This document shows positions 5,642 to 30,678 of a stretch of 64,000 nucleotides of DNA, one piece after another. The notes beneath the pieces are model-generated. The model did not search any database, was not told where the DNA came from, and saw only the letters and a program-made list of their open reading frames with translations. The translations under genes were made by a program, and so were the position numbers. How positions within the stretch are numbered: position 1 is the stretch's first letter; the number at the start of each line of letters is the position of its first letter. The DNA is taken from positions 124,001 to 188,000 of the forward strand of contig NQMI01000002.1 in NCBI GenBank assembly GCA_002270565.1, written 5' to 3'. Source of the stretch: Stenocarpella maydis (Eukaryota; Ascomycota; Sordariomycetes; Diaporthales; Diaporthaceae).

Positions 5642-6211
5642 TCAGAAGGAGTTGTTCATCCCGGACATATCCATGTCTCCGCCGTAATTACCATAGCCCG
5701 GAAAGTCGAAGCCCATGAGATCCTCGATGGCACCTAGGCTGGAATAATCCTCGAAGGGTCCAAAGGACTGAAGGGAAGCCTCAGCGGGCATGAAAAAATT
5801 GTCGGCAGAGTTCCCAGCCCGGCCCGCAATCAGCGTGGCAAAATCGGTACGGCACACGCAGAGGAATGCCTGGTGGCCATCCTTGGAGGCATGCTTCTCA
5901 AGGGCGTGGTTGTTCCGGTGTGTCTGCTTGCAGGTGGCACAGGTATGGGCGGTATTAAAGTTGATTCGTGTATGCAGGAGGGTTCTGCGAGATACGCGTG
6001 CAAGGCTGTTAGCGCCCGGAAAAAAAAAAAAATCTCACCTGGTGGCTCCCTGAGCCTCGTCGGCTGCAGGACCTTGTGTGGAAAGTGGGCACGCCACTGT
6101 GCCTTCAATCACATGTGTCGCAGGGTGAGATGCACCGGCTGACTGAGCCCCGGTGCTGTTCTCACCCACGTGGTTGAAGGTGAGGCTGTGTGGTGCTTGG
6201 TAGCCAGCCAT
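5642..6211 (-). CDS. C2H2 zinc-finger protein, copy A of a local family
   Basis: Exon 1 is 6211-6039 and exon 2 is 5984-5642, with a 54-nt intron at 5985-6038 starting GTGAGA and ending CGCAG, in phase 2. The product is about 171 residues. An in-frame upstream start at 6538 is possible but its sequence looks non-coding. Finger 1 has the spacing C-x2-C-x12-H-x5-H (CATCKQTHRNNH...H...H). It is followed by LCVC, the start of the second finger of copies B and C, but the rest of finger 2 and all of finger 3 are missing. The C-terminus is rich in Asp, Phe, Tyr and Gly (FEDYSSLGAIEDLMGFDF) and could be an acidic activation domain. A nuclear DNA-binding role is likely from the family; targets are unknown. 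With one finger it may bind weakly or act as a dominant regulator of longer relatives. Confidence 0.6.
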
Positions 6212-7382
6212 GATGGGTACTTCGTCGGGTGTAGTGTGTGATGTGTTGAGTTGCGAGAGTGTTCCAGAACCGCTTTGGCCGGGCACCTGGGAGTACCCTC
6301 CAACATATGTTTTCCCCCACCTGGCTTTCCTTGGTTGGCGGAGTAGAGGTACCTGAGGCTCTGATGTACATTCACGTCGCACAGGGTGACAATTCTTGGC
6401 CTGCATGTTGGGCGTAGACGGCTGTGGCCAGTGGAGGCCCAACCACCATGTTGGGCTGCCGATATTCGAGGGGTTGTCGCTTTCCGAAACGGCAGCTCTC
6501 TGGCCGCAAAGCAAGGCTGCACTGATTCCATTGCGCACATGGAGCTGAAGTCACACCATGGCAATGTCTGCATGCTCCAGGTTCACGGTCTTTTTACACG
6601 TCAAATTGGCGAGCGACAGCAGCCACTGCCTCCTTACAAATAATTTTGAGAACCGAGCGTGTGCTCATAAACTTGGTCCTGGCAACATCTTTGACTAGCG
6701 TAAAGCTGTGCGGATGTTCTGCTTCTTTGAAAAGAAATTCACGGGGAGACGCTTATGGTGACGGCATCTGCTGTTGTTATCCAGCACTTGCTTACATCAA
6801 GCGAAGCTCATCAACAACGAAGCTGCCCTTCGCACATTTGTTCACGCGATACGGCGTTTGAGTGAGTTATAATGTTAAACCCCGGGTCTTTTTTTTTTTT
6901 TTGGGGGGGGGGGGATGGCGTTCATATCACGTACACTGACGGTAACGATGCATTCAGAGAAGGAATATGCGTAGAGTGAGAGTAGGTAGATAATAGGCAC
7001 ACTGGTATATCTGAAACCCAGCATGGATCCTATTACCTGCATGCCTAGATAATGATATTCGAATTATCAGCCGGAATTCTCATCCAGTATTCCTCTTCCT
7101 CAGTAGTCTGGTATAGGTCATATCATATATACACAATTTTGTTTCAGCTCATTTACATTGACGGACAACTCGTTTCGAGCTCAAAGCCTACCTAGGTAAC
7201 CAATTGACCGGTCGCGCACCTTTAGTTCCGACCATGTGTTATGTGCTAAGGAATGTGATACTCCTGGCCCTGGACAGAACCATTGATGTGATTTTGATGG
7301 CACCAGCAGCAACGCATGTGCTGGATTTTCGGACGTCAATTTAGAATAGGGAGATATAATGTCTCTGGTGCAATAGTGAGTA
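6212..7382. other. Upstream of copy A; AT-rich tract with a T/G homopolymer junction
   Basis: The stretch includes the promoter side of copy A. A run of 14 T is followed by 12 G at 6889-6914, which may be a real homopolymer or an assembly weakness. From about 6940 the sequence becomes AT-rich. No gene is recognised. Confidence 0.4.
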
Positions 7383-7728
7383 GGTCCAGGAAATACCTAC
7401 CCATGGGTACTCGTGCACAGACACCGGGTCCTAGGACCCGGTTTATAAAATCACTGGGTCCTGGGTACCCATGGGTCCTAGGTAATGCTATGAGTAATTT
7501 TATTAGATATTTAGAAAATGATTTATTTAATAGCAGATCAATGTTAAAAATAAGGATAAAAACTTAGTATAGAAATTAAATTATTAATTTTATGATATTA
7601 AACTTAGAACCTATGGGTACCTACTTATCCAGGACCCGTGGGTTATGTTATACCTGCAATTACCCATGGGTCCTCGGGTACCCCTTGGGCATTACCCACG
7701 CGTGGGTACCTAAGTAGGTTCCTGGGCC
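7383..7728. mobile_element. MITE-like element flanked by TA
   Basis: The left end GGTCCAGGAA and the inverted right end GGCCCAGGAA are imperfect terminal inverted repeats. Both are followed by CCTAC and GGTAC-type motifs. TA dinucleotides at 7381-7382 and 7729-7730 flank the element, as for Tc1/mariner-type insertions. The centre, about 7490-7610, is strongly AT-rich and non-coding. About 346 bp, so too short for a transposase: a non-autonomous element. Confidence 0.6.
7423..7442. repeat. Perfect 20-bp palindrome inside the MITE-like element
   Basis: ACCGGGTCCT is followed directly by its reverse complement AGGACCCGGT with no loop. Related GGGTACCC and TGGGTCC pieces recur through the element. 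Confidence 0.85.
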
Positions 7729-7822
7729 TAGCCCTCCACCATCATAACACCACCTCTCAATTTTGGGGCTCACTCATATCCTTCGTCTCTACCGTCATTT
7801 TAGTCCCTCGAACCTAGCCAGG

Positions 7823-9173
7823 ATGGCATCAAACAAGCTGACAAGCAATGCTCCTTCTCTGGATCCTGTCATGGAAGAGTCACATGTCCGCAAAGCCACT
7901 GTTCATGACCTGGGAAACGGGGATCATTTTTCAATATATACACGCGCACTGGAGAGAGTCTTGTCAACGGATGTTGCCCAGTCAACACTTGCCCAACTTG
8001 TGGACGGTGCACCTCTCAGCCAGACTCTTTGCTTGACGCCTGAGGGGCCTGAACCATGTCATCCTGTTTACGAACACTCGAAGCTGTGCGATGGGGTTCA
8101 TTAAAAACTTGGACACATTCTGGACACGTCCAACTTGCATGTCTTGCACTTCGACTTTAATGTAAGCCAAAGCCCCACAGCCAACCAGGGATGTGGGTCT
8201 GACGCACGTCTTGCAGCTCGTTCGCCGGTATCTAGCCGCCCCGCCCGGTTCAAAGGCATTCAAGGCTGGATTGATCGAATTAATAGCTTTATCTGTACAT
8301 CAAATCGCGGCGTATATCTACAAACTACATCTAGACGTTGGCAGCCACAAAGCACTGCTGAAGGCGGACAACAACGCCCCGACATTCTTCTTGCACAGCC
8401 AGTACAAAGACATTGATCAATATCCTGATGGAGTGGCCGATGCCGTCGGTTACTGGGCCGAAGCTCAGATATTTGGTGGCGTGATACTGTTTGACCGGCG
8501 AGAACAAGACGGACCCTCGGTACATGTGAGTTTTTCTTAGTAGTTGTACTCTAACAACCGTCCCTCATTCTCCTTTGCAACGCACTGAAACGCAACAAAA
8601 GGAGGCTGATTGCTTTCTCCCATGGAATAGAGGTGAAACTGTCTATCGGAATCTGCAGCTTCTCGATCCAGAAGAGTGGGAAGCCTTCGATTTCTTCTTG
8701 TCTGAGAATCGCGCTTTAGAACAACACTCCCAAGCTCCCTACGACATATACTTTCACTGCAACAACTACGATGTGACTTACCGAATTTGGCAGCTGCTTC
8801 CAGAGCAGAAAAAAGCCCTGTTTGAGTTCCTTTTGTCGGAAACAGGAGAGGCCAAAATCCCATTACCCATCCGCCCGAGCGAGAACCACCTTTTCCGAGT
8901 CGACCCGGAGGATCCGATGACCGAAACGCGCATCTATCGAGACATTTGGGAACGGAAACCCCTTGATGATGAGAATGGCGACGCGCGCATGCATCATTCT
9001 CGTGGTAACATGGTCGACTTCTTCTGTCGCACCGACGAGGACAGGTCCAAGGACGGGGCAGCCCTTCGGAACGAACTTATCTGGCGATCAAATCACTCGA
9101 GGACCGAGCCCAGGAATTAGCAACGGCGAGGGCCTCCTGGACACAATTAGCATCGCCGCCGACTGAAGAATGA
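7823..9173 (+). pseudogene. Frameshifted copy of a conserved fungal hypothetical protein
   Basis: Coding character continues across the whole interval but moves between frames. The first part, starting MASNKLTSNAPSLDP, ends with VYEHSKL near 8085. The next piece, GFIKNLDTFWT (from 8094), is in another frame. HFDFNVSQSPTANQG (about 8140-8190) is back in the first frame, and GLTHVLQLVRRYL (from about 8196) is shifted again. A clean phase-0 intron at 8526-8601 follows. The next exon carries DVTYRIWQLLPEQK and ETRIYRDIWERKPL. Near 9080 the frame shifts once more to LAIKSLEDRAQELATARA and stops at 9171-9173. At least four indels make a functional full-length product unlikely. The family is one I recognise only as conserved in ascomycetes, without a known function. 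Confidence 0.65.
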
Positions 9174-10574
9174 GATAGCGAGGTGAAGACATTGCAGACA
9201 TCAAGAGGCATAGCAGGGCATGTGGGTCTAAGTAGTCCCCTGTAGCAATCGTGGGGTCATACTTCTTTGCGCTATAGAGCTGATTACAGAAGCCTGAGCC
9301 TTCCAAAGTTGGGCTTCTTACCAATGTCGGGTCCCAAGTAATCTCATCTGTACCGCTGCCATCCTGAGGTTCTCTGCGACTTACTTCCAGCTGCTGATCC
9401 AGGAGCTATCACGCATCCTCTACCAGGACCCATGCTTCTAAGAAGCATCAAGTGGGCAGCCACCAACGGAAGCAAATAAGAATCATTTTAACAAAATTGC
9501 AGTCTGCCCCTTGAATGCTGGGCTCTCAGCGAAAAGACCGCTACAACGTAGATACTACTGAATAACCACCTACTGGTGGTCGGTTGTAATACAACATAAT
9601 GTCTCTAAGCCGAGGATGGCCGGTTTTATCCGCTGTTCGTTAAGCTGGTCTTATACTCCGTAAGTAAACACGCATGCTTCCACCCAATCCCAGTGCTCTC
9701 TCTCTCTTCCCACCTCAGCGCACGGCAACAACTGTGCCAAACAAATAACAGCTTCCATTCCCAACCTATCCAGTTATGATGTCTGAACAGAAACCATCAT
9801 CCGCACCATCCATTCGTCTCTTGACGCGGATGGTCGACTGTCACCCTTGCGCTTCTGCGGCACACCCCAGTCCAAGAGGCGCCTCCAGCTGGGAAGTTCC
9901 CCTGATTGGGCCACATGTCCAGCGCTCGGCTTACCCTGAACAAGACTGGATTCGCTAACACACGGTCAGCCAGGCAGCTCATGCACGATCCGCACCCTGC
10001 CAGAATCATATAAGGCGACGGGGCCTCCTGGGCAGCCGCCTTATCTCGGGGCTGGAGCGACGCAACAGCCTCTCATGCCGATATCGAAATTGTCCGCCAG
10101 GGTGCGGCGCTCTGCTGCTGTCACACAATCGCGACTGTTGCTCCCCGGCCGTGATGACGTCGGGTTGAAACGTGGCCGAATCCGGCTCACGGTCGACTAT
10201 TGCAGCGCTATGGGTGGCTTCGCGACTCCCAGCCCATTGGCCTTGGACTTTTTCTACTAAGTATGCCACTTGCCAATGACGGCTCCGACTGCTCGTTCAA
10301 GGGGGTGTCTGTCGTGCGGACACCCCGTCGCCTTGTTTCCTATTGCACCCCTCCGCCCCCAAGCTGACGCCCTGCCGCCTCGTGGGATGGCGGGGTTGGG
10401 CACCCATTTTTGTCCCTATTTGAAGTGGGATGACGCCCCGGGGCACGACGAGACACGGTAATGGTGTTCCTACGCAACTTTTTCATGCCAACAATTAATC
10501 ATTCGACTTACTAGAGCCATTCTCCCGTCCACCACGAATGCCACACAGGGGCTTATCCGCCAGAACCCAAAAGA
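9174..10574. other. Intergenic region before C2H2 copy B
   Basis: No recognisable gene. A short open frame at 9776-9958 follows a CT-rich leader-like stretch (about 9700-9720) but has no family resemblance. The rest shows no clear repeat. Confidence 0.35.
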
Positions 10575-13521
10575 ATGGACCCACGCGACCAGGCGCGCCT
10601 TGTCAGGCTCGAGTACGGCGGCCATGGCCAGAGCTTTGCAAGCAGTGACCTCTCCGGATATGGTGCCGGCACCAGCACTGCCCCCACGCCCGGGAGAGTT
10701 GACTGGCACAACCAGAGGAACGCCACGAATAACGGTGCGGTGGCTTCGCCAGCCAACTATGCGCGTCAGCAAGGCGCAGTCACCAGTCCCACCTCCGGCA
10801 GCCCTGGCTGGGACCAGAAGTCACCGGCCCCGCATGAGCTGTAAGTGTACAGTTCATTTTGGCCACTGTGCCTGCCCGTTGCCCAACATGTCGATGGTTT
10901 TGTTCTTTTTTTTCTCTTTCGTTTTAGTAATTGTTATCTCATGTGCTGTGAGATTGTCATGTATGGTGAGGGGCAGCGAACGTCTGGAAGCTTGACCCAC
11001 ACTCTCTTCGGCTGCTCTCACACCCATTCGGCTCTGCTTGAACGTCTCATGGGCTTTTGTGGACAGTTTGAGATGCCAACTGGTTCCATTAACACAGGAA
11101 TCGCCCGGATGCTCTTTGGCAGGCCAGATTTCTCCAAGACATGGTGCTGCCGCCGACGCACCTCTATCAAACAGGATCCACACGGGCTTGGGAGGAATCT
11201 GCGATGGGTACCCTCAATCCACTCACTGGCTGCTTGGATTGTTGCACAAGGACGGTTGCTCAACCCAAGGGCAGTTATCTAGGGAGCATTTTCATCCACG
11301 GCTTGGACTTCGTTTTTCCTTTCATCCGCTGCCCACTTATGTGTTGGCTACATGGATGACAGGGTATCGTGTTCTCATCCGGACGGCCGCTTTCCGCGGT
11401 TATGGGGGCCATGCCATCGGACCACTTTGTCCTGTGGGATAATTCTACAACTACGGTAAAGCCCTGGAAGCCGTGGACAGGCTGGGTTCGGATTTTATGC
11501 CGGGTACTTTGCTGTCTTCCCTCCCAGGGGCTGCCATCAGTGTCTTGCTTGGCATGTTGGGCGGCCCAAAGGACATTTTTGAAGCCAATCCCGGCCATCT
11601 TGGACCCTACAGGATATCACATCCGTCTCTGCGACCCATTAGACCCTGAACCCTCGGAAAACCCTCACAGCGACCCACAATGGAGATATATCAATACAGC
11701 CTAACCAAGCTTGACATTAACAGGCCGGTTTGCCACGGCGGAGTGCATCCCAGTTGCCCTGCCAGCTTCGGAAAAAGCGCACTTGAAACCATTTTCCTGT
11801 TTTCCACGGTACAGAGAGTCTTAATCCTCTCTAACAATCATGAAGGAACCAGCCAGCGCTGGAGGCGACTGGCCCAGAAACAGTAGTCCTTTAATGGGGC
11901 CACATTTCACCGTCCGGGACTGACCGGCCCTTGTCCGAGGAGGATCACCTACATAGATATTAGCCGATTGTTTTTATCATTGCTTTCTTTCTTTCCATGT
12001 TTATTTTTTTGTTGTTTCGCTTCCATCTCGTATTGTTTAGTTTTGTTATTCTTGCACTTCTCCCCACGGGGACCACGCCCTGGGAGGGATTGTTTTGCAG
12101 CTTGCCTATCAGGAGACCCAGAGACTCAACCCCACGCCTTGCCTGCTTCCACTACCACATTGAGGTGCCCTTCCGCGCATTGGGATTGGATGTTCGCCCA
12201 AGCCTAAGCCGAGTGTACTAACCACTCCTCTCCCAAGGAAATCCACAACCGAAAACCGGCGGATCCTGGAATCGGCCCTGCCGTCCAGCCTCCAGGAGCA
12301 CACCAGGCGGGAAAGACGTACCGCAAACACCTGTGCGGTCTGTAACGACTCGTTCCAGACCAACTCCGGGCTGGAGAGACATGCAAAGGAGACTCGTCAC
12401 TCCTCCTTTGTGTGCGCATGCGACATGACCTTCGGCAGGCTTTCCTCCCTCGCGAGGCATATCAACTCGAACACGGGATCCGGGTACCACTGCGAGCTGT
12501 GTGATGACAGGAGGCTGCCCCGCATCGACAAGCTCTATGACCACCTCCGGGATGGACACAAGGTCAGCCAGAAGGTTCTGGACCGGTACAGGAATAAGGC
12601 TTTTGCCCGTCCCAGGAGGGCGTCACGGGCGACGAACCCGGCCCCGGCCCCAGCCCCGGCCCCGCCTCAAGCTCCGTTTCACATCAGCCAAGCTGCGTCG
12701 CTCGGCGGGTATGGACCTTGGACTTCGGCTGTTCAGGTGAACGGGATGTATGAGCGGCATACCATGAGTATGACTCCATCAAGTCCGAATAGTATCAATC
12801 CTACCAATCTCACAGTAAGATCCGCCTGTGCCCAAAGCACGCTCCATATACCACTCCCCTGGCGACAAAACAAGGGTAGAATACATGCATCGTGTGGATC
12901 AACTTAGGGCTGACTTGATGCTTCCCAGATTTTCAATGATCACTTCACCTCCCAGTGAGCTTCTTAAGGCCTGGGTTGCAGACATTTTTCCACGAACTAG
13001 CATTTCCTTGACTTGATCGTTATATGGATAGTTGGAAGGTCTTCTGAAGCCAAATTCTTTGTTTTTCTTCTGGGTTTCAACACAGGACCCAGCAGTGTCA
13101 ATCCGGCTCCCTGTTTGATCCAGGATCACCCGGCCTGGTGGTGCCAGGCTGTGCTCGTGTCCTTGATGGGGGCATTGTTTGATTGCCTGCCCTTTGGAGC
13201 GGTTGGCACATGGGGTACACAGCAGTGACGGCTAAAATCAGTATAGTCTGCACAGTAACAGAGCATGACCTAATTAATATCTGTCAACCTTTGTTTATTG
13301 CACAGGGCTCTCACACTAGCTACGCATATCAACGCCTGTCTACCAGCAACGTAGACCACGAAAGCTTCCGAAGAGTGAGGATGAACCAGCCTTTCAGTCA
13401 AGTTTCGCCTCGTAAAAGTGAATCTGATGTTACAGTAAATTGGACATCGACTGATGACGTTCCAACCAATTTTCAGGTGTTCCGTGGATATGTCACGCTG
13501 GGACAAATCAGAATAAGCAAG
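10575..13521 (+). CDS. Three-finger C2H2 zinc-finger protein, copy B (most complete relative)
   Basis: Proposed exons are 10575-10840, 12238-12814 and 13306-13521, the last with an uncertain 3' end. Exon 1 (MDPRDQARLVRLEYG...) ends at a consensus GTAAGT donor in phase 2. The finger exon follows a TACTAAC branch point and an AAG acceptor in the matching phase. Finger 1 is CAVC-x12-H-x5-H, finger 2 CAC-x12-H-x9-H, and finger 3 CELC-x13-H-x4-H, all with ligands intact. Finger 3 is followed by HKVSQKVLDRYRNKAF and an Ala/Pro repeat (APAPAPAP). The finger exon could end at the GTAAGA at 12815, phase 0, and join the phase-0 exon at 13306; if it reads on it stops at 12907. Intron 1 would be 1,397 nt, about 15-25 times longer than in the relatives, so an insertion or a missed exon is likely. 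A nuclear DNA-binding role is inferred from the fingers. Confidence 0.55.
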
Positions 13522-13833
13522 GTGAGCATCTCAACGGGCAGTCAGAGGGTGTCGGAGGAAGTCAGGCTTTCAAGCTTGTGGCACATGGTTCCTGCGGTCC
13601 TGCTGACGGAGCTCGGCGGAGGTCTAATGCCTCGATCTGGGCCGCCCTGCATTTCGGCGAGACGACGGCCGGGCAAACATTGAGATATCGGAGCGCCCTC
13701 TTTTCCCCAGAGGGTGCTGCTGGCGAGAAGGCCTGGCCCCCTCGTCAAGTGCCGCTCCAGCCTCAGCACCATTGGAGATGCAGGTTGGGGCCTTGGGGTC
13801 TCACTGGCTGTGAGAGTGGCACAGCATCTGATA
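13522..13833. other. Region between copy B and the transposon
   Basis: Starts with a GTGAGC donor-like site and contains no clear exon. The last copy B exon could continue into it. The TA at 13832-13833 is the transposon target site. Confidence 0.3.
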
Positions 13834-14798
13834 CCATCTGACACCCACTAGTGGAACACCCCTACCAGTGGAACGAGGAGCCACATACAAACTGCCCAAA
13901 CTCACAATGCACATAAAATACTCAATAATTAGTATTGAGAGTTGATTTGTATAGTAAATTAAAGCTTAAAAGATGGCTAATCCATATATCTAGCCGGCCG
14001 CTTGATTCCACGCCCAGATCTTATAACAATTGGTGCCAGAATGTCCTCCTTATCCTTATTACCTAGTCCCTTATCACTAAAGCCTTCAAATACTTCTTCA
14101 TCAGCAAACATATCTTCTGGAGCCCGAAACTCCTCTTTAAGGTCTTTAATAAACCCTCCTTAGCTTAATATCTTATAACTACTTATAAATGTTTTATTAG
14201 GGTTGGGGATGGTATAGTGTTTCTTTATGCCCCTTTAAGCACTATTATGAGCCTTAAGCTTAGCATTTTCTTGCTCTAAGAAGGCTACTCTAGCCTGCAT
14301 TTTCTTAAAGGTGTTGGTAATATTCCTAGCCCGCTATCTTTACGTTAGGCTAGTGTTTTAAGCTAATTTAAGTATATAGTCCCTTATGATAAGGTCCTTA
14401 TCGCTAGCATTCTTAGGTAAGGCTTCAGCCATACCATTCTTACGATCCTCTCAATTTAGCTAGATTTCTGGGTGATTTAACGCCTTCTAGCGGCTTATAG
14501 GCCAATTTCTAATATGCCTCCAAGCTAATTAAATAGTTGTTGGCTTTATAGCCGCGCTAGCCTTTACTAAATAATAAAGGAAGTTGATTTTGCCTATAGG
14601 CGCTAAGTTGGTGATAGAGTTAAGTTTAGCTAATTCTTTTTAATAAGCAGCCTTAAGGACATTGAAATGTCTATTATCTGCTGGCTATAGCTCATGAGAA
14701 GTATGTATTAGGAGGAAGCATAAAAAAATATTACCAAAGAAGCACTCCTTAATAAATTCTACTTATCCAAGTATTATTAGTAAATAAACCTTTAATAT

Positions 14799-14801
14799 NN
14801 N
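14799..14801. other. Assembly gap (NNN)
   Basis: Three unknown bases lie exactly at the junction between transposon sequence and the LTR-like fragment, so this boundary and the true distance are uncertain. Confidence 0.95.
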
Positions 14802-15270
14802 GCAAGGAGTTACCCTAGACTTGCGAGTCAGGCGATTTTCGCTAAGTACGCCCAGTGCGTGCGTGACGCAAGATGAGTTTGGTGGCCGTGAGTCGATTAT
14901 TTTGGCCTGCATTTGCACCTTAATTTAGACCTCTGCATTACCCTTATTCCTTACCCAAAAAGTATATAACTTGGTGCATTAGATAGCTTGATTTCTGAAG
15001 TTTATATGTACTTAATTTGGGCATTACTAGGGCTATGGTTGGCTAGTTGCTTGGAACTAAAGATGGTGTGTTGGAAGGGCGAATTTTCCGGCATTTGCAA
15101 ATTTGCACCAGAGCCTACCGCAGCGTGCCCAGGGGTGAGACGAAGTCGGAGGGTATATAAGGAGGGCTTACAGAAGCCCAACTTAATTTAATACAAAGTT
15201 GTCCAGACCATTGTCAATTGTCCCAATTCGCCTCAGAGCACCATACTGCGACCCTGCCGAAACACACACA
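14802..15270 (+). mobile_element. LTR-like fragment nested in the transposon
   Basis: Shares long blocks with the LTR at 24544-25007. Both have AGTGCGTGCGTGAC, then GGCCGTGAGT, CTCTGCATTA, GCACCAGAGCC, and GGGTATAT with GAGGGCTTAC shortly after it. The GGGTATATAAGG at about 15153 looks like an LTR TATA box. The left end is hidden by the gap and the right end could not be fixed; no target duplication was found. Confidence 0.6.
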
Positions 15271-16362
15271 CGCTGAACTGAATGCTATTTTATAGCACAA
15301 ATTCATCACAAGTGCTAAGAGTATAACTACTTGAACTCTTATAAAAATCATTAGGCTTAAAGATCTTTGCCCTTAAAGACAATTCCCAAGTTTAAATAGT
15401 GACTAGAAGCTGTAATAGTATTAATAAGGGTTACCCAAGCACAGCTACCACTTATCTTCTTAATGGCAGTTTTAATCTCTATAGATCTAAACATAAGGCT
15501 ATTAATACCTAAAATTTATTAGTACCAACTATTATAAAGCTTTATAAGTATATAAATAATACCTTAGCCCTCCATGATACCGCCCTTATTAACATTAACT
15601 ATTAACTCTAGCTCAACCCAGTTAAATTACTCTCAATAATTGAAATACTAGTAGACTGCCTTTAGCATAAAGCCATTAAATTAGGCTACTTCTTAAGGGC
15701 AAGAAATCTTCATTTTAATATCATTATAGCGGCTTTTAAATAATGCTATCCAGTACTTCCCAAGAGGCTAATTATCACCTTATTTCTTTATAATAGCCTT
15801 AGCAATTTACTGCACCACTAAGGCTGTTAGGGTATAGCCTAGTAATTCCTGCTTAATGATCCATTTAACAAGCCTATTCTCCTTAGCAATAGATAGGTGT
15901 TAAGCGGGCTGAATAGCCTCACTTTTAGATATAGTATCATTCATCCATCGGAAGAGTATCATCTTAAGTATACTATGCTTTTGGGTAGCTTTACCTAAAG
16001 TAAACTTATTATCAATGATATTAAACATAGCATCAGCTATATTCTCTTCATTATAGCCAGGAATTGTGTGGTTGGGTGGTAATTAAGAGGAATAGGCTGG
16101 GCTATCATGAAGAGAATTAAGAAATTGGGCCCTAGGTTTAATATTTATATATGGGGTTCGGAATCTAATTGCAGCTACTCCAATGCCCCCAAAACACTAA
16201 CTACCTATATAAGCTTATTTACTAAGTAAATATCTACAAATTGATCAAATTCCTATGTATATAGCTTCAAAATTGGCTGTGATACATGTAAGTCAATATA
16301 GTGATTTGTATGTAGGTCCTCGTTCCACTGGTAGGGGTGTTCCACTAGTGGGGGTCAGATGG

Positions 16363-17376
16363 TAACTAGTGCCAGCTCACCAGGCCTTGATGTCGAATCC
16401 GCCTTGATTCTCTGCCTTGAATTCAACCCCTCAAAGCCCGGGCCTTTCTGTCATCCTGTCCCCGTGCCTTACATATGCAGAAGCCTCGGTCTGACCCCAG
16501 TCATTGCTGTCGCAATATGAGGGACCGCAGCCTCTGCACCCCGTTTTCCACCCTCCCTGCACCCTATTTATTCAATTCATGTTGAACCAAGCCCTCCTGG
16601 AGGCAGGCAAAGTGGCTGCGCCCATGTCTGATTGGCTTCCTTCCCTCCCGGTTGCACATCAACGCTGCACAAGGCCTCCTTTACCTGGGCAGCAATGCAG
16701 CATTTGCACCCTGTGAAACCTCATAGCCCCAGGTCAATTTCGGGGCTGTGAAGAGCTTCAGCAACCCGTACCAGTTAAATTTGTCACAGTGTTTCCTAGT
16801 TTCTGGCGACATATAAATGTCTCCATCATCCCACCACCACGTTTGGATCCGAGCAACACTCGACCATTATTGGTTGTCGCTCCGTCTTTCGGCATGAATT
16901 CCTACAAGGTTCGCGCTGAATGCTTCTGACGAGGACTGAGGAAAACCCAGACGCTCATTCTCTGATACCACACCTGCTTGGCAATGAGTCTGTTCAGTAG
17001 CCTTTGCCCCGCTTTGAAGGTGTTGAGACATTCAAGCTGAGCTCTCCCGTTTCTCGTCATGCACCAGCACACTGTCCATAGGTTAAGAGGGTGGTTTTGC
17101 ACCCTTTTTCGCATCGAGGAGGCTTAGCCAGCACCAGTACGCCCAGGGCAAGTCTGGCAACATTTAAGGCCGAGTTATCCTCATATATTATCATAATATC
17201 TAAACGTGACTTCTCTTCTGCCTGTGAGCCTGGCATATTTGCATCTTCACCCTCCGTACATGCGAAGCATATCCACCTCGTCCCAACATTGCCTCTCTCT
17301 TCAATGTTCTCTGTACAGCCTTGTCTTTCCTGACAACCCCATAAACTTCCTTGCCCTTGCACCAATCACCACAGCC
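16363..17376. other. Region between the transposon and C2H2 copy C
   Basis: Non-repetitive, of moderate GC content, with no recognisable protein. The last 150 bases are CT-rich and probably represent the old promoter and leader of copy C. Confidence 0.4.
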
Positions 17377-17981
17377 ATGGCCAGTCGTAGTGAATACATG
17401 CCCAACATGGGAAGGTCCATTCATACCACTCAGACAGACACTTCGGCCTCCAACCACGATACCTTAGCCGATCAGTAAGTGACGTCTCACACCACAAGGG
17501 CATCCATCCACATCCTAGGTCTCCATCCCATGCCACACTTTTTCTGACCACTATTCTCTGGTGCAGGGCCTTTACCCAAGAGGCACTCCTTCAACCCGAC
17601 CTTTCCAGCTTCCCTGGCCCCTTTGCCCACGACAAGGTATCACACCTCCAAAAGACTTGTGCCGTGTGTCTCAGCCAATTCTCAACCAAGATAAAACTCA
17701 AGGACCACGCCTCAAGATCCGGCCACGGCGCATTTTCCTGCACTTGTGGCCGAGGATACTCGAGGGCCTTCGTCCTCACCCGCCACATCAACTCGATGGT
17801 CGGTCCTGGCTACCCATGTGAGCTCTGCGACGACAAAACATTCCCCCGATGAGTTAAGTTGTGTGACCACCTTCGCCGTTGGCACAAGCTTAGTGCCAAG
17901 GCCTTGGACCAATACAGAGGTGGGAACTCTACCCGCAAACACAGCCCTGTTAAGGGACAACATGGCTCCGGTTCCAGCTAG
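17377..17981 (+). pseudogene. C2H2 zinc-finger protein copy C, interrupted in finger 3
   Basis: Exon 1 (17377-17474, MASRSEYMPNMGRS...) and the finger exon from 17567 are joined by a 92-nt intron in phase 2, exactly as in the relatives. Finger 1 CAVC-x12-H-x5-H and finger 2 CTC-x12-H-x9 are intact. Finger 3 starts CELCDDKTFPR and is cut by TGA at 17850-17852. Beyond it the same frame continues with VKLCDHLRRWHKLSAKALDQYR, aligning with copy B, to a stop at 17979-17981. The stop most simply comes from CGA to TGA. A truncated two-finger protein could still be made, so loss of function is inferred rather than proven. Confidence 0.65.
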
Positions 17982-18135
17982 ATAATAAGACCATCTAAAA
18001 TGAAAAATCACTTTGAAGGCTTTGTGTGGATAATCTAGTGGTCTTGATTGTGAACTTGTTTTGTCTGTCGTAGACAAGCCGAGCTATACACATCTTGTTC
18101 TGTGCGGGCGACTAGGCCAGCCTTGCTCCTCAGCT

Positions 18136-22715: not shown

Positions 22716-22720
22716 CATAT

Positions 22721-23163
22721 TGTTATGAGCCAACACACATTGGCGGCTGACTACCGCAGAAGACAACCCCGCAGGTCGGGAAGTGGCCCCCGAGAAGAGC
22801 GCCCCACCTGATCCAATCAGTGACGCCACCTTATCAGGGTTAGGGTCAAGGACCCACCAGGATCGATGGGATCTATGTCGATTCCATCGAGCAGCACCCA
22901 GTCGACGGCATCACCGTCGATTCCATCGACCACTGAAGAGTCGGAACATATATACGGACATAGTCATCACCACAGTAGATAGTTTTCATAGAACAGACTC
23001 TTCAGTCATCAATCTAAGTATTCAATCCCAGTATTGGATAGCCTCACAGCTAGTGATCATTGTCAGTCAACAATATTGCTCAACAACCGCCTAACAACGT
23101 ATTCCGAACATAAACCCTTGATCTTTCAGGTTTAACGTACTCGGAAACCCTCTGATCATTACA
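22721..23163. mobile_element. Solo LTR with a 5-bp target duplication
   Basis: Begins TGTTATGAGCC and ends ATCATTACA, with the TG...CA termini of an LTR. CATAT lies directly on both sides (22716-22720 and 23164-23168), a 5-bp duplication made by retroviral-type integrases. At 443 bp with no internal coding region it is a solo LTR, probably left by recombination between two LTRs. GC-rich and comparatively undamaged, so younger than its AT-rich surroundings. Confidence 0.75.
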
Positions 23164-23168
23164 CATAT

Positions 23169-24538
23169 CTCCTATATTTAAAAATTATTTTCTAAATAAT
23201 ATATAACTTAATTTTAAAACATTTAAATATAACTTTTATTAATGATAAAGAAAAAGAAATTAATTATTACTACAATTAGTAATTAAGATTAAAACTAGTT
23301 TTTAAAACTAGTAGTATTATTAATGAGGAAGTTAGTTAGAATGAGTTAATTATGAAATCGCGGCTAGGAATGTTAGTTGATCCGTTGAGTCTTGAGGATG
23401 GCATCGTCGTCCATCCTAGCAAGCTTCGTCTGAAGGAAGGCGTGCAACTTCACGACTTTCTTTGCCGTGTTTTCCATCCGGAAAATGTTGTTGAGAGAGA
23501 TCCTGGGCCCAAAGAGAAGGCTGTCCTGAAACAATTCGGAATTGTGGGCGGATCTAAGTGAGTATGGGGTAATCCGGGGTAATCCGGGGTAACCCGCGGT
23601 GGTCGTGGGGGACCAAGGCGATAGGCCGTCGCAATCAAAATTGTGATAATAGGCATTGTAATGTGTAGGTGACAATAGCTTCGTCCTGCCGGCCAATAGT
23701 GTCCACACTACGCAATCTACATGTCCGTGCAGACACCAATGGGACCAGATGGGGTTTAAATTGTCTGGGGATAGTCCCCCCACACCCCGAGAATGAGGGC
23801 CCAAGACCGTTCCGACGCCGCCGGATTGGATCTACAGCAGACAAGGCTAGCACCGAGCCTGGAGGGTCGTGGCTGAAAGTCAAATAACCTATGTGGAGCG
23901 TCGTGATCACGCCCTCAACAGGCCAGATCCGTCAAAGCGAATGATGTCGCCGGCCAATGGTTTCCGGATCGTGAGGTTAATATCCCTGGCCTAGTTTAGC
24001 CCCCCTCCCGATTTATCCCTATAATTTTTACAATAAATATCTACTATTTAACTAATTATTATTAGGTTTCTAAAAGTAGTATAATTATATAAATAAAAAA
24101 TTTATATTAATTAGTATAATTTATTTAAAACTATTACAGGGTGGAACCTAGGTGTTGGCGCGGTCCGGCTCTCTCAGGACCCACTGGGGATCTCGCACAC
24201 AAGAGCGCGGATCCCGGACTTGCAGGATTTTCCTTCTACTTTTTCTTTCCTTATCGAACCTAGCTTAGTTACGGCCAATATACAGCGTTGGCTTATTTGC
24301 ACCCGTTACAATAACTTAGCTTAAAATATATAAAAAGATAATTTTAATAACTTTAAATATAATTATAATAAATTATAAATGTTTTTCTTTTAAAACTTAA
24401 ATAAAAAGAATTTTTTAAAAAAATATATTCTTAATAGTATAATTTTAAATACTATTTTATGAAATATATATAGTTAGTTATTATCTAATATATATATTAT
24501 AATATTAATTTAAATAAAAAGCTTACAAAAATATAAAT
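23169..24538. other. Mosaic of AT-rich and GC-rich repeat debris
   Basis: AT-rich at 23170-23345, 24000-24140 and 24300-24540. A GC-rich block at 23350-23980 has a short open frame (23352-23561) of unknown family and three GGGGTAATCC-type units near 23566-23598. A second GC block (24151-24300) starts TGTTGGCGCGG and may be another LTR remnant. No intact gene. Confidence 0.4.
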
Positions 24539-24543
24539 ACTTT

Positions 24544-25007
24544 TGTTAAACGGAAACAGTCGAATTCGACCAACTACGCCTAGTGCGTGCGTGACAAGAG
24601 ATGACTTGTATGGCCGTGAGTTGATTTTTTAGGGTATACAACTACCCCGACTTTGAACCTCTGCATTAGACTTATTTCTTGCCCAAATTCTTTGTTAAGT
24701 AAACCAATCAGAAGGCTAGCTTCTGATATATATCTGTATGTATTTTTATAGGCGTATGGGTTAGGGTTGTTGGGTTATTCGGGGTTAAAGTAGGTTGGTT
24801 TTTGACTAGATTCTTCGTCATTTGCAAACTTGCACCAGAGCCACCCGCAGCGTGCTGCGGGGTGAGACGATGTCGGAGGGTATATGAGGAGGGCTTACGG
24901 AAGCCCACTCAAAATCAGTACCAGATAGCAACAAGCAATCACAAGTTTTCCAACCAGTACTCTGCAGCCCCCTGAACCACTTCGATCCAGTATCGTACCT
25001 ACCAATA
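24544..25007. mobile_element. Solo LTR with ACTTT target duplication
   Basis: Starts TGTTAAACGG and ends ACCAATA. ACTTT flanks both sides (24539-24543 and 25008-25012). The expected terminal CA reads TA, explained by one CpA to TpA change. Internal blocks are shared with the fragment at 14802-15270, including a GGGTATATGAGG promoter-like site. 464 bp, no coding content. Confidence 0.7.
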
Positions 25008-25303
25008 ACTTTATAATACTTTTTCAAATTAATTTATTTTAAGTTTTAATAAGTTACTAATTCTATATTTTTAAAAGTTTCTAAAGTAAATTAGAAGTTG
25101 TTAGTTTACATAGGAAATTAAGGCTGAATCAGGGGGTAGTGAAAGTGCGCTGGGGATGTTACGCAGGCGTCGCACTTCTTATTGACTGGGTCCCCAACAG
25201 TCGTGAGCTTTGACTGTGATACTTTCTGCTCATTACTGGCTTGCCATCAACTGCCCAGCACAACGCTCCCAGTCAACGAACTTCACTGGCCGAGACCCTC
25301 GCC

Positions 25304-25849
25304 ATGGCTCACGAGAACGTATTTGCATCTCATCGCCCGGTGACGCCGGACAAGATCAAAGAGGTCGAGACCAATGCTCAGCGTTATCTGTGGGCCGTTG
25401 GCACTTGTGCTCTATGGTGTTGGCATCCAGCACAAGATGCACTGGATTGTTCCAACTATTGGCATTGGTCTAAGTAAGTACATCACTATTTTACGATTAT
25501 GTGCAACGTGCCCTCTGACCATGTTCTAGTCAACTTTTGCATCACACAAGCGAACAACGTCTCACTTGTTTACACTATCGATTGCTATCGGCCAATTGCA
25601 TGTGAAATTGTGGTCACTCAGCTTGCCTTCAAGTCCGCCTTTGGTTTCCTCCTCGGCTTCTACACCAACCCCTGGGTTAACGAGGCGGGTTACCAGACCG
25701 CGTGCGGGATTATGGGTGCGATCTGTGGTGGCATCTTGATCCTCTGGATCCCTATCTTCTTCTGGGGTCATAAGATCAGAGTAGCCACCGTTGGCTGGGG
25801 CATTATGAAGTATGCGCGCTGGGATCTCGACAGAGAAGTAGGCGAGTAA
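25304..25849 (+). pseudogene. C-terminal fragment of an MFS transporter, frameshifted
   Basis: A phase-1 intron at 25474-25529 joins two pieces. The second encodes VVTQLAFKSAFGFLLGFYTN, then GGILILWIPIFFWGHKIR and RWDLDREVGE, matching the last two helices and tail of a fungal major facilitator family. The first piece has KEVETNAQRYLWAVGT and then, one frame over, LYGVGIQHKMHWIVPTIGIGL, so an indel near 25405 breaks the frame. Only about the last three of the usual twelve helices are present. A transport function is therefore ruled out for this fragment; the original substrate is unknown. No transposon end was found next to the truncation. Confidence 0.7.
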
Positions 25850-26299
25850 GAATTCAATCCCTTATGGCTGTAACCATTCTCCATTGCCTCCTGAGTCCAG
25901 TTGAAGAAATCCCTGGCATTGGAGAGTGAGCAGTTATACTCATACCGCCCGGATGGTTTTACGTGCGAGGCTTGATGTTTTGCCTTTCGAACATTACAGG
26001 TGGCCGGGACGGCTATTACGCCAGCAGTTAATAGACCAACCTGTCTCACATAGACTATATAACAACTAGGTAGTATATGTGCCGATCGACTATGCTGCAG
26101 CGGGCCCACCCAGAGCGACTCCGCTCTTGCGCACAGTACATTAACTTATCTGCGTGTAATGCGTCGCTCACTGAGGCCTGCATGTACGGGGATAGCTACC
26201 CAAATGGGCCAACGGGATGAAACGGAGACCTTGCAGAGCCGTCTGTTGGCTGCAGGGTGTTCTGCGCACCACGCAATTGTGGTGTCTGTCCGACCTTGG
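25850..26299. other. Region between MFS fragment and MITE
   Basis: No gene or repeat recognised. The last bases carry the left copy of the 8-bp duplication of the following element. Confidence 0.4.
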
Positions 26300-26307
26300 C
26301 TGGACAC

Positions 26308-26781
26308 CGGTCCTGGTTCACCCACCCAGCTTTTTGTGTTCACCTAACCAGCTATTTGTGTGGGCATACCTAGTCTAAGAAATCAAGCGTGCAGCATACC
26401 ATAAATTCTTGTACCTCCCCCCCTCTCAAGCCCCTCCATACCCCACCACGCGCTTAAAGGAAGGCCATCCATATGTGCCCAAAGGAAGCCCCGAGGGCCT
26501 AGAGGGTTAGGGTAGGCCTTTTATATAGGCTTTCTATATACTGTGGGCTGGCAGGAGCGATAGACCAACGGTCGGGGTACTAAAGGGAGCTTCTTGGCAC
26601 CTAATTTCAGTGGCAGCTTTCTCCCCAATACAACTCTTTTTGCCCTAGTGGCTCATCCTTAACCATCCTACTACTACTTCAATACCTAGCTGAGGTGGGG
26701 CCTTGGTTCGGGGTTGAGGTATATGCTTAATTCCTCGTACTGGGTGTGCCTATAAATAGCTGGGTGGGTGAACCATGACCG
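26308..26781. mobile_element. hAT-like MITE with 8-bp target duplication
   Basis: Left end CGGTCCTGGTTCACCCACCC and inverted right end CGGTCATGGTTCACCCACCC differ at one of the first 20 bases and stay similar (AGCT.TTT.T) to about 33 bp. CTGGACAC lies on both sides (26300-26307 and 26782-26789). An 8-bp duplication plus short inverted ends is the hallmark of hAT elements. 474 bp with no transposase, so non-autonomous. Confidence 0.8.
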
Positions 26782-26789
26782 CTGGACAC

Positions 26790-27022
26790 ACGCAAGGAAG
26801 GCAGAGCGGGGTCACACAACGAAGATGACTTGAGCCTCAATGCATATCTATGTCACCAAGCTGACAGCAAGCCCCGGACCTCTGTGATACAACAGCCTCC
26901 CAACCCTATTCTTCCTCTTTTCCCCTCGGCTCTGTGCGTTTACTCAAACACATCTCCGCAGATAATCAAGCCTCCCAGGGACACGATCACTCTAATCAGT
27001 CCTTCGAGATCCAAACGCAACC
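26790..27022. other. Promoter side of the DUF4267-type gene
   Basis: No coding sequence seen; CT-rich near 26900-26935 as in a fungal leader. Confidence 0.35.
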
Positions 27023-27548
27023 ATGTTTGAGGGGTTTTCACTCCGTCATATCCCGGGCCTCATGTGAGCATCAAACCACTGTCGAACCATACAACGTTGA
27101 GGGGTTTTCACTCCGTCATATCCCGGGCCTCATGTGAGCATCAAACCACTGTCGAACCATACAACGCAACAACTACTGATATTGTACTTGCACTAGCGTC
27201 GCCACAACAATGACTTTTGGAGGCATGTGGCCCGCCTTCGACGCTCCTGGGGCGATGCGCAAGTTTGGCTTTCCAGCACGGATAGCCGATGCGCCCGCGG
27301 CCGCCCCCGTCATGGTTATCGGCCAGGCTCGCGCCACCGTCATCGGCCTGCTGGTGTTCCTATTCTACTCCCGCAACCAGCTGGAGCTGGTTGACCTGGT
27401 CACAGCTGTGACGGCTGCATACTGCGCCCTGGTCGACTTCTACGTTGTGTGGAAGGAGGGCGAGCCGGGCCATGCGGTGTTCCGCCTTGTGACGTCCGGG
27501 ATGCTTGCGGCCTGGGGATACGCCGGGATGACATCGCCTCGGGCCTGA
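27023..27548 (+). CDS. Small membrane protein, DUF4267-type
   Basis: Exon 1 27023-27063 and exon 2 27197-27548 join inside an Ile codon to give 130 residues starting MFEGFSLRHIPGL. Features are a GMWPAFDAPGAMRKFGFP loop, then hydrophobic segments ATVIGLLVFLFYS, VTAVTAAYCALVDFYVV and LVTSGMLAAWGYAGM, so probably four helices in a small integral membrane protein. This matches the DUF4267 layout as I remember it; function is unknown. A perfect 70-bp tandem duplication (27027-27166) copies most of exon 1, its GTGAGC donor and part of the intron. Only the first donor follows an in-frame ATG, so the second copy should fall inside a lengthened 133-nt intron. Confidence 0.65.
27027..27166 (+). repeat. 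Perfect 70-bp tandem duplication across an exon-intron junction
   Basis: Unit 1 27027-27096 and unit 2 27097-27166 are identical. Each contains TTGAGGGGTTTTCACTCCG, a coding part, CTCATGTGAGC (donor) and intron sequence ending ACAACG. Perfect identity indicates a recent event or an assembly duplication. Confidence 0.95.
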
Positions 27549-29499
27549 TTGGCCTGTGCCGTTTCGTCATGGAGCTCGCGAGCCTGTGGCGGTTCGGAGC
27601 GACGACCTACTTTGAAAAGACCTCGAGCATTTGCGCTGGTACTGGTTCTTCACACCATCACCTGGGCTGCACGTTGACCTACCCTGATCTGGATCACGCC
27701 TCTCAAGTAATGGCAGTGTACGTAGAATCAAAATAGAGCACGAACAAATTTATTTAACTCGAACTGCTGTGGGTTTTGGGGTAAGGCTTTGGTGGCTGGT
27801 TAACCAACTTACTGCCCTGCCAGATGGGCCGGCGTTAAAATCTCAGTTCGTCACCTACCTGCTCGACTAAACGATGCTGAATGTGACCCCGACCACTGAA
27901 ACGCTTGAAACGTACTACGGTAGGTAGGACAGAACATCAAAATTTAATAGGTGACAATCTATGAAAAAACTGTTCCCAAATGGTGTTATCTGATTTGGCC
28001 CACTCTCCTGATTCCATGGCTGTGTACTCCGTACCATTCGAGTGATCGGTCTGTTGGTCCGTGGCGCCCGGGAGACACGCATGAGGTAACCAACAGACCG
28101 ATTGACCGAGTCTCCACTACCTCGCCACCAACAATTACTGCCAACAAACCCTAGATATCACCAACAACATTGTAGTCTAACTGAATGAGGAATTCTCCTC
28201 CGAGGAAGTTCCAGCACAGTGCTGGGCATGGCTCCAACCGCAGCCTGGTGAGTGCTCAACGGGACTTCCATCATCCCTCGAGCAAATCACCGAGATTCAG
28301 GGTCAGCATGCCTCGCAATTTGAAGTCAAAGTAATACCATTAATAGCCTGCGCCAGATTACCTCCCTCTTCATGACGATCCCTCCTGACCAGATTCATAC
28401 CCAAGTCATTATACTAATCTCGACATCTTGTCTCTCGCCATGGCCGATCTGTCTGGTGTTCCACCAAGCTCCAATCCCAATGGGGACCCTCCCGACTTCT
28501 CTCATGGCCCCTTCCATCCAAAATGATGTATTGGGAAGCGGTGTTGTTCTCATTAACATTCAGCGTCGCCCTTGTGCTCGTTCGCGTAGGCACCTCTCTG
28601 TACAATAGCCGCAAGATGTTCCTCGATGGCTCTAAGTACTACCTGGAGTTATTATCTGCTTGCAGATGGAGTCGGCTTTGAAGAAGTACTGGCATGAAGT
28701 CATTTCCCAGAGCCTGCATTCCTTTGAAAGCCTTCAGCCTGGTTCAACCAGCCACCGAACCCCGGGATGAGATTGGCTGAGAAGCCCCCGCAGACCGGCA
28801 TGGCGCCGGCTGGATAAGCAAGTAGGGAGCGGCGGGAGCTGCGCCATGAGGCTCCGGGGTGCCAAGGCCCGGTCATGAAATCGGCACCGGAGGTGGACTC
28901 GTCGATGTGGCGTCTCCGGGCGGAGAGCCTGAAGGAGGCCTCAAGGAGCTGGGCGTTTTCCTGAGCCATGTTTGGTACCGCCCGCGTGGCCGCCGTAGTT
29001 GCGCTATCGAGCTTGTGGTGCGAAGTTGGCGCGTCCAGACAGGCCGGGTTGGGCTGGGTGGCCTCGCCTGGACATGTCTTCACGGAGGAAGGCTCTCACG
29101 GTGGTCCTCGCCGGTCGTCTCTCCCGGCCCTGGTACTTGTCTCCCTGCACCAGTAGGGTGCAAACATGCAAGTTTCTGCAGGCCTTTTTGCTCATATCCG
29201 CTGCTGCCCCATTGGGCTGCGCAGCGCTGCAGGGGGAAATTGTGCCTGCTGACCAAATGGACCGGCCGCTGCCCCTTCAAGAGGCCTGAGTCTACTGCAG
29301 GCACATCCGTTCTGACAGCAATGGGACGCGTAGACAGGGCGGCGGTTATCAGGCTATCATGTTATATGCATTACACTCAACTGATGTCCCAAGTGAAGCA
29401 ATGGACTCGTGCAAGATCACGCATGCCAGACTGGGAGGCCAGGATGGGGGAGAAATTCATTGTTAATTACAAGCTAACATACGTGACATCCATCGTTGC
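27549..29499. other. Gene-poor stretch with a possible P450 N-terminal relic
   Basis: No intact gene is recognised. At 28523-28681 (+) a 52-residue frame MMYWEAVLFSLTFSVAL... then LYNSRKMFLDG resembles the membrane anchor and linker of a fungal P450, with nothing of the enzyme behind it; this is weak. A minus-strand frame at 28968-28700 (MAQENAQLLEASFRL...) and an opposite one at 28859-29620 have atypical composition and are not called. Confidence 0.3.
28045..28102. repeat. Inverted repeat, 14-bp arms
   Basis: ATCGGTCTGTTGGT at 28045-28058 and its exact complement ACCAACAGACCGAT at 28089-28102 enclose a 30-base loop. It could form a hairpin or be the relic of a small element; role unknown. 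Confidence 0.8.
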
Positions 29500-30678
29500 T
29501 TATGCCGGACCGCCGGCGTCTTGCTCAGCGGCGATGAAGCCAACGGCTCGCGCTGGTTCAGTCGCAGCGAGACAGGGCTGGCGGCCAAATCCACCAGTCA
29601 TTAGGAAACTCGTATCGTGAAAAGGGGTGGGGGGACTGTGAGTATGGTGATCTGAGGCAAGACATGAACGCAGAAACTCAAACATGGGGAAATAGTAGGC
29701 TGGCGGCGCAGAGAAACACTCAAAGTATATTCCAGTCGATGCCGTTGAGCCAGCCCCATCTCCAAAGCTATTCTCGAACGTACCGTAGATACCCTCGCCC
29801 TGAAAGAAGGCGGCCGTGAGGGGCTCTACAGCGAGGACAGATGAGCCGGCCGGGACAAAGGAGCCAGGCGGAGCGAACGAGGTGGCCATAGTGACCATAC
29901 CGGAAATGAATAGGCGTGGCTGGAGGTTAGCGTACTGCTGCTGCCCAGTGAACACGGTGGCAGGCCACGCAGACGGTCCGGCAGGAGCTAGAGCAAGAGC
30001 CGGAGCAGCAGCAAGAGCCGGAGCAGCAGCAGGCGTCAGAGTCCGGTGTGTTCCAGACGAGGCTACGGCCAAGGTGATAGGAGCTCGATGGCGGCGACGA
30101 GAAGGAGTCCCAGCTCGAGGCGTCGCAACCCGAGAGTCAAGCGGGCTTCGCAAGGTGTCCTCGGTGACCTTGTGGAAATTCCGGTAGTGGTCCCTGAGCT
30201 TATCCTTGCGAGCAAACTTATCAGAGCAACGCGTGCATTCGAAGGTCGTGGACGTATCGATGGTTACGATGTAGCGGTTGAGGACTGACTGCTTGGTGAA
30301 GCCCTTCCCGCACCTGCACTTGTAGGCCTAGTGATTAGCTGCCTTTGCGTAGTTATCGAGGGCGTGGGCGTTGTGGAACGTTCCAATGCAGAACGCACAG
30401 ACAAACACTCTGATCGTGGGGGCGAGTATTAGTAAAATAAAAAGAATAAAAAAAAAAACTCACCCATTGGATCTTGCACCATGGTAGGGTGTAAGATCCA
30501 CTGGGGAGTGCCGCTGGGCCGTTGTGCCACCCTTCATCACCCCAGATGAGGCATTGGGAGTGGCGATGCAGGTTCTGGGCTGGTCCATGGCAGAGGCGGG
30601 CTCCGCGCCGAGGGAGGCCGCTATGTCGTACGACCCAGGGAAGGTGTTAAAGTCGAAGGGGGTGTTATACTCAGACAT
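29500..30678 (-). pseudogene. C2H2 zinc-finger protein copy D, inactivated by CpA-to-TpA changes
   Basis: Exon 1 30678-30464 (MSEYNTPFDFNTFPGSYD...) and the finger exon from 30409 are separated by a 54-nt intron (GTGAGT then T-run), phase 2, the same length as in copy A. Finger 1 is CAFC-x12-Y-x5-H and finger 2 CRC-x12-Y: in both, the first His is Tyr (CAC to TAC). A TAG at 30330-30328 sits where copy A has Gln (CAG). Finger 3 CTRC-x12-H-x4-H is intact. After it the frame is open for about 200 further codons of Ala/Pro-rich and Phe/Gly-rich sequence to a stop at 29500. All three lesions are C to T in CpA, the preferred RIP context. Stop readthrough cannot be excluded, but two lost zinc ligands argue for a pseudogene. 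Confidence 0.7.

What the first reader, a model, noticed from the sequence alone, without database searches (positions are those of the whole stretch)
5642..30678. Four dispersed paralogs of one C2H2 zinc-finger family in a 25-kb repeat-rich region
Copies at 5642-6211 (-), 10575-13521 (+), 17377-17981 (+) and 29500-30678 (-) share the finger-1 spacing C-x2-C-x12-[HY]-x5-H, a finger 2 starting C-x-C, and a phase-2 intron just upstream of finger 1. Copies A and D even have the same 54-nt intron starting GTGAG and a T-run. The N- and C-terminal parts differ widely, and copies range from intact to broken. A transcription-factor family spreading and diverging among transposons is unusual and may be lineage-specific.
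Basis: partly seen in the sequence, partly recalled or inferred. Interest (0 to 1): 0.75.

Follow-up and report, generated by a model that had tools for sequence, protein, structure and literature searches.

The report
Zinc-finger gene with three decaying neighbours
A probable Diaporthe fungus carries one well-conserved three-zinc-finger gene with three fast-changing and mostly damaged relatives close by; this looks like ordinary gene duplication and decay in a family so far seen only in Diaporthe, not a family spread by transposons.

Summary
The four copies are real and related. Their finger-1/finger-2 spacing occurs 4 times in the window against 0.01 expected, and genome searches with B and a Diaporthe amygdali relative recover all four. 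The genome (53.5 Mb, 312 contigs) gave one further convincing member, E, at the end of contig C42. So 4 of 5 members found lie within 25 kb: a local cluster.

B is the conserved gene. Its three-exon model (10575-12958) gives 290 residues and matches D. citri, D. eres and D. amygdali proteins over 98-100% of its length. Copies A, C and D sit on end branches about 8 to 16 times longer than B's. C has an in-frame TGA in finger 3. D has an in-frame TAG after finger 1 and has lost two histidines. A keeps only finger 1, though its frame is open.

Spread by transposons is not supported: the repeats found lie between the copies, which share no flanks and show no RIP signature. 'The same 54-nt intron' in A and D holds for length, donor and T-run only.

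Best reading: a C2H2 gene, probably a DNA-binding regulator, with old neighbouring duplicates that are decaying or diverging freely. Ordinary in kind; interest modest.

The parts
5642..6211 (-). Copy A: two-exon gene model, exon 1 6039-6211, intron 5985-6038, exon 2 5642-5984; 171 aa, open. Finger 1 complete, finger 2 reduced to its C-x-C, finger 3 absent; its tail matched nothing else in the genome search
   Evidence: splice sites inferred from sequence, no RNA data
10575..12958 (+). Copy B: three-exon model, exons 10575-10840, 12238-12814, 12929-12958; 290 aa, intact, three fingers; closest to D. citri INS49_014122, D. eres SLS63_009096 and D. amygdali N8I77_003038
10841..12237 (+). Intron 1 of B, 1397 nt, one match (itself) in the genome; one relative (P0020) has 319 residues of open frame upstream of its exon 2 start
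17377..17981 (+). Copy C: exon 1 17377-17474, intron 17475-17566, exon 2 from 17567; in-frame TGA at 17850-17852 inside finger 3; the finger Cys/His positions of B are all still present
29500..30678 (-). Copy D: exon 1 30464-30678, intron 30410-30463, exon 2 29500-30409; in-frame TAG at 30328-30330 just after finger 1; first His of fingers 1 and 2 replaced by Tyr; a 275-codon open frame follows the stop
13832..16364 (.). Inverted-repeat element between B and C (60-bp terminal inverted repeats at 13832-13891 and 16305-16364), AT-rich, copies about 80-90% alike elsewhere in the genome; a second repeat (about 14802-15311, mostly 96-98% alike elsewhere) is nested in it
22717..23163 (.). Short dispersed repeat between C and D
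24543..25008 (.). Short dispersed repeat between C and D, partly related to the repeat nested at 14802-15311
7381..7708 (.). Short dispersed repeat between A and B

Best explanation
A conserved C2H2 gene (B), so far found in named records of Diaporthe only, was duplicated more than once and long ago, and the duplicates lie beside it in a stretch with transposon remnants. B stayed under constraint: the Cys/His frame, both ends of the protein and (in D. citri and D. eres) the exon 1/exon 2 joint are kept. It most likely encodes a nuclear DNA-binding regulator, with fingers between disordered tails; this function is inferred from the fold only. The duplicates lost constraint. C and D gained in-frame stops, D lost zinc ligands, and A shrank to one finger with a different tail. 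Shown here: homology, copy number, gene models, the close match of B to other species, stops and long branches. Inferred: splicing, DNA binding, the order and mechanism of duplication (probably unequal exchange or repair-linked local duplication, with inversion for A and D), and loss of function.
Against: A keeps an open frame with coding-like codon use (shuffle z 4.7; but exon 1 alone only 1.4, with another frame scoring higher), and E keeps its finger ligands and an open frame, so not every copy is dead. D's 275-codon frame after its stop is unlikely by chance (2 of 5000 shuffles stop-free), so its stop may be recent or D may still make a product. Finger 2 lacks a conserved fourth ligand, which weakens a plain DNA-binding reading. 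The tree does not group A, C and D with B: it joins D to P0011 (96/86, starred) and C to that pair (84/55). The program calls the long rows unsure, but taken at face value this would put those duplications before the split of the species, so 'recent and local' is not shown.
Confidence: 0.74

Rival explanations
1. The cluster is a fast-evolving working family: A, D and E (perhaps C, truncated) are expressed proteins with changed or reduced fingers that compete with or modulate B.
For: A and E are open reading frames; E keeps the Cys/His positions; codon use in A as a whole, in C before its stop and in D is coding-like (z 4.7, 2.9 and 2.2-3.7); D's frame after the stop stays open (2 of 5000 shuffles).
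Against: In-frame stops inside or next to fingers in C and D; two His lost in D; A lacks two of three fingers. No relative of D's frame among 7998 scored candidates and only B-like proteins in the profile search; both searches see only relatives that share exact 5-residue words, and one search missed a known relative (P0014).
Confidence: 0.18
2. Transposon-driven dispersal: the fingers were carried or copied by mobile elements.
For: Repeats lie between the copies; A and D are inverted relative to B and C; E is at a contig end.
Against: No shared flanks; 27200-32600, which holds D, has no repeat match; B's intron 1 has no second copy; composite RIP index of the copies is -0.29 to -1.0; only five members found in 53.5 Mb. 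The DNA of the exons of A, B and C was not searched for repeats; the protein searches found no near-identical second copy of them.
Confidence: 0.05
3. The stops in C and D are sequencing or assembly errors and the genes are intact.
For: One stop in each copy; codon use on both sides of D's stop is coding-like.
Against: D also lost two ligands and C and D sit on long branches, so decay does not rest on the stops alone. No reads were available.
Confidence: 0.08
4. The spacing is convergent and some finger exons (A above all) belong to unrelated C2H2 proteins.
For: A versus B is weak (E=3.0e-4), and a protein elsewhere scores almost as well as A with B as query (C145, 4.7e-4) and better than A with C as query (0.0017 against 0.004).
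Against: C and D match B strongly; with P0013 as query A scores 2.0e-5 while the C145 locus is at 0.07, and with A as query B scores 3.1e-6; a phase-2 intron occurs upstream of finger 1 in all four.
Confidence: 0.04

Closest known systems
Diaporthe citri INS49_014122, D. eres SLS63_009096, D. amygdali N8I77_003038 and J7T55_009897 (hypothetical / C2H2-type domain proteins)
   Same: Same protein as B: three fingers and similar C-terminal region in all four; the same N-terminus in the first three, and the same joint between exon 1 and exon 2 in D. citri and D. eres
   Different: J7T55_009897 is predicted with another N-terminus. Whether these species have duplicates like A, C or D is unknown: their DNA could not be searched here
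Classical C2H2 zinc fingers (Pfam PF00096, PF13894)
   Same: Strand/helix finger units, Cys/His ligands, profile matches to solved C2H2 proteins; 17 of 19 aligned members match PF13894 and 16 of 19 PF00096 at E of 0.01 or better
   Different: Finger 1 has His-x5-His, finger 2 starts C-x-C and has no conserved fourth ligand; B passes the PF13894 cut-off only just (27.5 against 27) and misses that of PF00096 (23.4 against 25.2)
Aspergillus nidulans C2H2 + Zn-cluster paralogs with gradual loss of C2H2 domains (PMC5415576, passages read by 'find' only)
   Same: Paralogs in which C2H2 fingers lose ligands step by step after duplication
   Different: Those proteins carry a C6 Zn cluster; the Pfam scans of B and relatives list none

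Membership tests
C2H2 zinc-finger proteins (PF00096/PF13894) | Profile match above the curated cut-off | tested here: inconclusive
   Exon 2 of B: PF13894 27.5 bits against 27, PF00096 23.4 against 25.2; with the longer frame 12164-12907 PF13894 scored 26.2, below the cut-off. Other members are stronger: best PF00096 E=2.2e-10
C2H2 zinc-finger proteins (PF00096/PF13894) | Four zinc ligands (2 Cys, 2 His) in each finger | tested here: inconclusive
   Fingers 1 and 3 of B have all four; finger 2 has C-x-C and one conserved His, with no conserved fourth ligand in the alignments
C2H2 zinc-finger proteins (PF00096/PF13894) | Strand-hairpin/helix finger fold | tested here: met
C2H2 zinc-finger proteins (PF00096/PF13894) | Sequence-specific DNA binding | not testable with these tools
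   Needs DAP-seq, EMSA or similar
The B family: copies B, C and E | Finger 1 C-x2-C-x12-H-x5-H, finger 2 C-x-C with its His, finger 3 C-x2-C-x12-14-H-x4-H | tested here: met
   All positions present (C with a stop inside finger 3)
The B family: copies A and D | The same three fingers complete | tested here: not met
   D has Tyr for His in fingers 1 and 2 and a stop; A lacks finger 3 and most of finger 2. They are counted as decayed relatives by homology, not as complete members
Gene carried by a transposon | Copies inside, or flanked by, the same repeat | tested here: not met
   No shared flanks; repeats found only between the copies in the stretches searched
RIP-inactivated duplicates | RIP dinucleotide signature in the duplicates | tested here: not met
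   Composite index A -1.0, B -0.77, C -0.51, D -0.29; positive in the 1-kb windows starting at 14001, 15001, 24001, 26001 and 63001

The most novel reading that the evidence does not exclude
A Diaporthe-restricted, fast-evolving zinc-finger regulator family in which a conserved three-finger protein (B) is accompanied by partial versions next door: a one-finger protein with a different tail (A), a stop-truncated two-finger protein (C) and a remodelled one (D). These could act as competitors or partners of B and turn over quickly between species.
Probability: 0.12. Interest if true: 0.5.

Novelty: new member of a known kind. Interest (0 to 1): 0.27.

Why it matters
It gives a small case of birth and decay in a fungal C2H2 family, with the conserved gene and its old relatives side by side, and corrects the picture of transposon-borne spread. 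The conserved B gene is an uncharacterised protein with a long first intron, so far seen only in named records of Diaporthe, a genus that includes crop pathogens (general knowledge). Its role is open and testable by gene removal.

Tried and rejected
Spread by transposons: tested by repeat searches of five stretches (13900-17100, 22100-27400, 6212-10570, 17982-22050, 27200-32600) and of B's intron 1, by flank comparison and by RIP indices; not supported. The rest of the window was not searched for repeats in this way.

Same intron in A and D: alignment of the two 54-nt introns is at chance outside the donor and T-run; rejected as evidence of a special A-D link.

D's stop skipped by another splice: the TAG could serve as an acceptor, but the frame would then be wrong for the phase-2 donor (reasoned from the models, not run).

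Other genome hits: C145:269173 (E=4.7e-4, 0.0017) has pairs of fingers and looks like an exonuclease (sequence; the name is recalled, not from a call); C111:483133 (E=0.13) is a C2H2 pair. Both were left out of the family by judgement. Hits with E above 0.005 elsewhere were not followed.

D's long frame: no relative at E of 0.01 or better among 7998 scored candidates. Profile search with family members: 17 proteins, all B-like. It did not return P0014 and P0019, which one search had found (P0019 is under the length limit), so it misses some relatives.

Tree: 15 of the 19 fetched homologues were used; P0012, P0017, P0018 and P0019 have no complete finger 1.

E's surroundings (10 kb of C42) gave no blastn match to the window, so E is not part of a large recent duplication. 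A phase-2 intron for E could not be established by eye.

One row (C after its stop) was started one base off frame and is not used. An earlier count gave C's stop as 17851-17853; the correct place is 17850-17852.

Papers: eight searches. None of the four annotated Diaporthe gene names was found, and no listing that I saw is about a Diaporthe C2H2 cluster (one search listed 12 of 16 papers, one search listed 15 of 17). Only passages of PMC5415576 were read; the others were seen as listings with abstract openings.

The Foldseek libraries 'pdb' and 'viral' were not run as such (only 'pdb_via'). Viral and bacterial contig collections were not searched, as fungi are not expected there; the metagenome cap was 0.
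Full report
Observation. The window (C111:124001-188000 of a 53.5-Mb, 312-contig genome) holds four stretches with C-x2-C-x12-[HYN]-x5-H followed by C-x-C, at the coordinates given. In 100 first-order Markov sequences the same pattern occurred 0.01 times per 64 kb against 4 observed; because the pattern was written from the copies, the genome searches are the better test. With B's 98-residue finger region the genome gives six matches: B, then C (E=5.0e-25), D (5.5e-11), a fifth locus on C42 (6.5e-6; here called E), A (3.0e-4) and a different protein on C145 (4.7e-4). With the D. amygdali protein P0013 the order is B, C, D, A, E (A 2.0e-5, E 3.8e-5), while C145 is at 0.07. Searches with C, D's frame, E and A as queries add no further convincing member. 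They are not uniform: with C, the C145 locus (0.0017) scores above A (0.004); with D's frame, A and E are not found; with E, A is at 0.15; with A, B is at 3.1e-6, C at 0.008, E at 0.02 and D is not found.

Gene models. From splice signals, the models are A 6211-6039 and 5984-5642 (minus), B 10575-10840, 12238-12814 and 12929-12958 (plus), C 17377-17474 and from 17567 (plus), and D 30678-30464 and 30409-29500 (minus). All four have a phase-2 intron before finger 1; the split codon lies 15, 32, 31 and 4 residues before the first Cys in A, B, C and D. B's model is supported by relatives: the D. citri, D. eres and D. amygdali (P0013) proteins match exon 1; D. citri and D. eres join it to exon 2 at the same residue; D. 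eres and D. amygdali end much like exon 3. B therefore most likely stops at 12958. The 54-nt introns of A and D share length, donor and T-run only.

Long intron. B's intron 1 is 1397 nt and has no second copy in the genome. Nine relatives' predicted frames reach into the region just upstream of exon 2 and match B there (P0003, P0004, P0006, P0007, P0009, P0011, P0014, P0015, P0020); P0020 has 319 residues upstream of its exon 2 start without exon 1.

State of the copies. B is open with three fingers. A is open over 171 residues but has finger 1 only and the C-x-C of finger 2. C has TGA at 17850-17852 within finger 3. D has TAG at 30328-30330 after finger 1 and Tyr in place of the first His of fingers 1 and 2; the 275 codons after the stop are open (2 of 5000 base shuffles were stop-free). 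Codon use against shuffles: A z 4.7 (exon 1 alone 1.4, where another frame scores higher), B 4.7, C before its stop 2.9, D 2.5 in exon 1, 2.2 before and 3.7 after the stop. E has a 214-residue frame (stop to stop) with the finger ligands in place.

Evolution. In a tree of 20 finger regions (five from this genome, 15 of the 19 proteins returned; the four left out have no complete finger 1) B has an end branch of 0.16 among its relatives (median of all end branches 0.072), whereas C has 1.27, A 1.47, D 2.58 and E 5.26. The tree joins D to P0011 (96/86) and C to that pair (84/55), not to B; the program warns that the places of long rows are unsure, so no order of duplication is claimed, and duplication before the species split is not excluded. 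In one search, 4 of 18 hits have a named organism, all Diaporthe. In one search, 17 proteins pass, all of them B-like, one of them new (P0020, no organism). The species of the window is thus inferred as Diaporthe or a close relative from this one protein.

Surroundings. Repeats found: an inverted-repeat element at 13832-16364 with a nested second repeat, two short repeats at 22717-23163 and 24543-25008, and one at 7381-7708. In 17982-22050 only weak matches occur, and 27200-32600, which holds D, matches only itself. The copies share no flanks; the only matches at E of 0.005 or better are in finger exons, 59-65% alike. RIP composite indices of the copies are negative (A -1.0, B -0.77, C -0.51, D -0.29), while the 1-kb windows at 14001, 15001, 24001, 26001 and 63001 are positive. 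E's 10-kb surroundings gave no blastn match to the window.

Conclusion. The cluster is best read as a conserved C2H2 gene, so far known from named Diaporthe records only, with old neighbouring duplicates under relaxed constraint, two of them with in-frame stops. Transposons are neighbours, not carriers, as far as tested. Loss of ligands and fingers after duplication has been described for other fungal C2H2 paralogs (PMC5415576, passages). Not shown: expression, splicing, DNA binding, the mechanism and age of duplication, and the presence of A, C and D in other species.

Noticed in passing
10841-12237: Intron 1 of B is 1.4 kb, long for a fungal gene (general knowledge), with no second copy in the genome, and apparently long in at least one relative too; it may hold regulatory sequence.
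   Followed up: partly
13832-16364: AT-rich inverted-repeat element with RIP-like composition and a younger repeat of about 510 bp, mostly 96-98% alike elsewhere, nested in it.
   Followed up: partly
27027-27166: Exact tandem duplication of a 70-bp unit.
   Followed up: no
18136-19722 (-) and 21217-22047 (-): Cytochrome P450 frames and a short-chain dehydrogenase frame between C and D.
   Followed up: partly
974-1405 (+) and 27180-27548 (+): A fungal rhodopsin-domain (PF20684) frame left of copy A and a DUF4267 (PF14087) frame between C and D.
   Followed up: no
L004 / C42:120281-120541: Fifth family member E with its finger ligands but a very divergent sequence, about 360-620 bases from a contig end.
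   Followed up: partly
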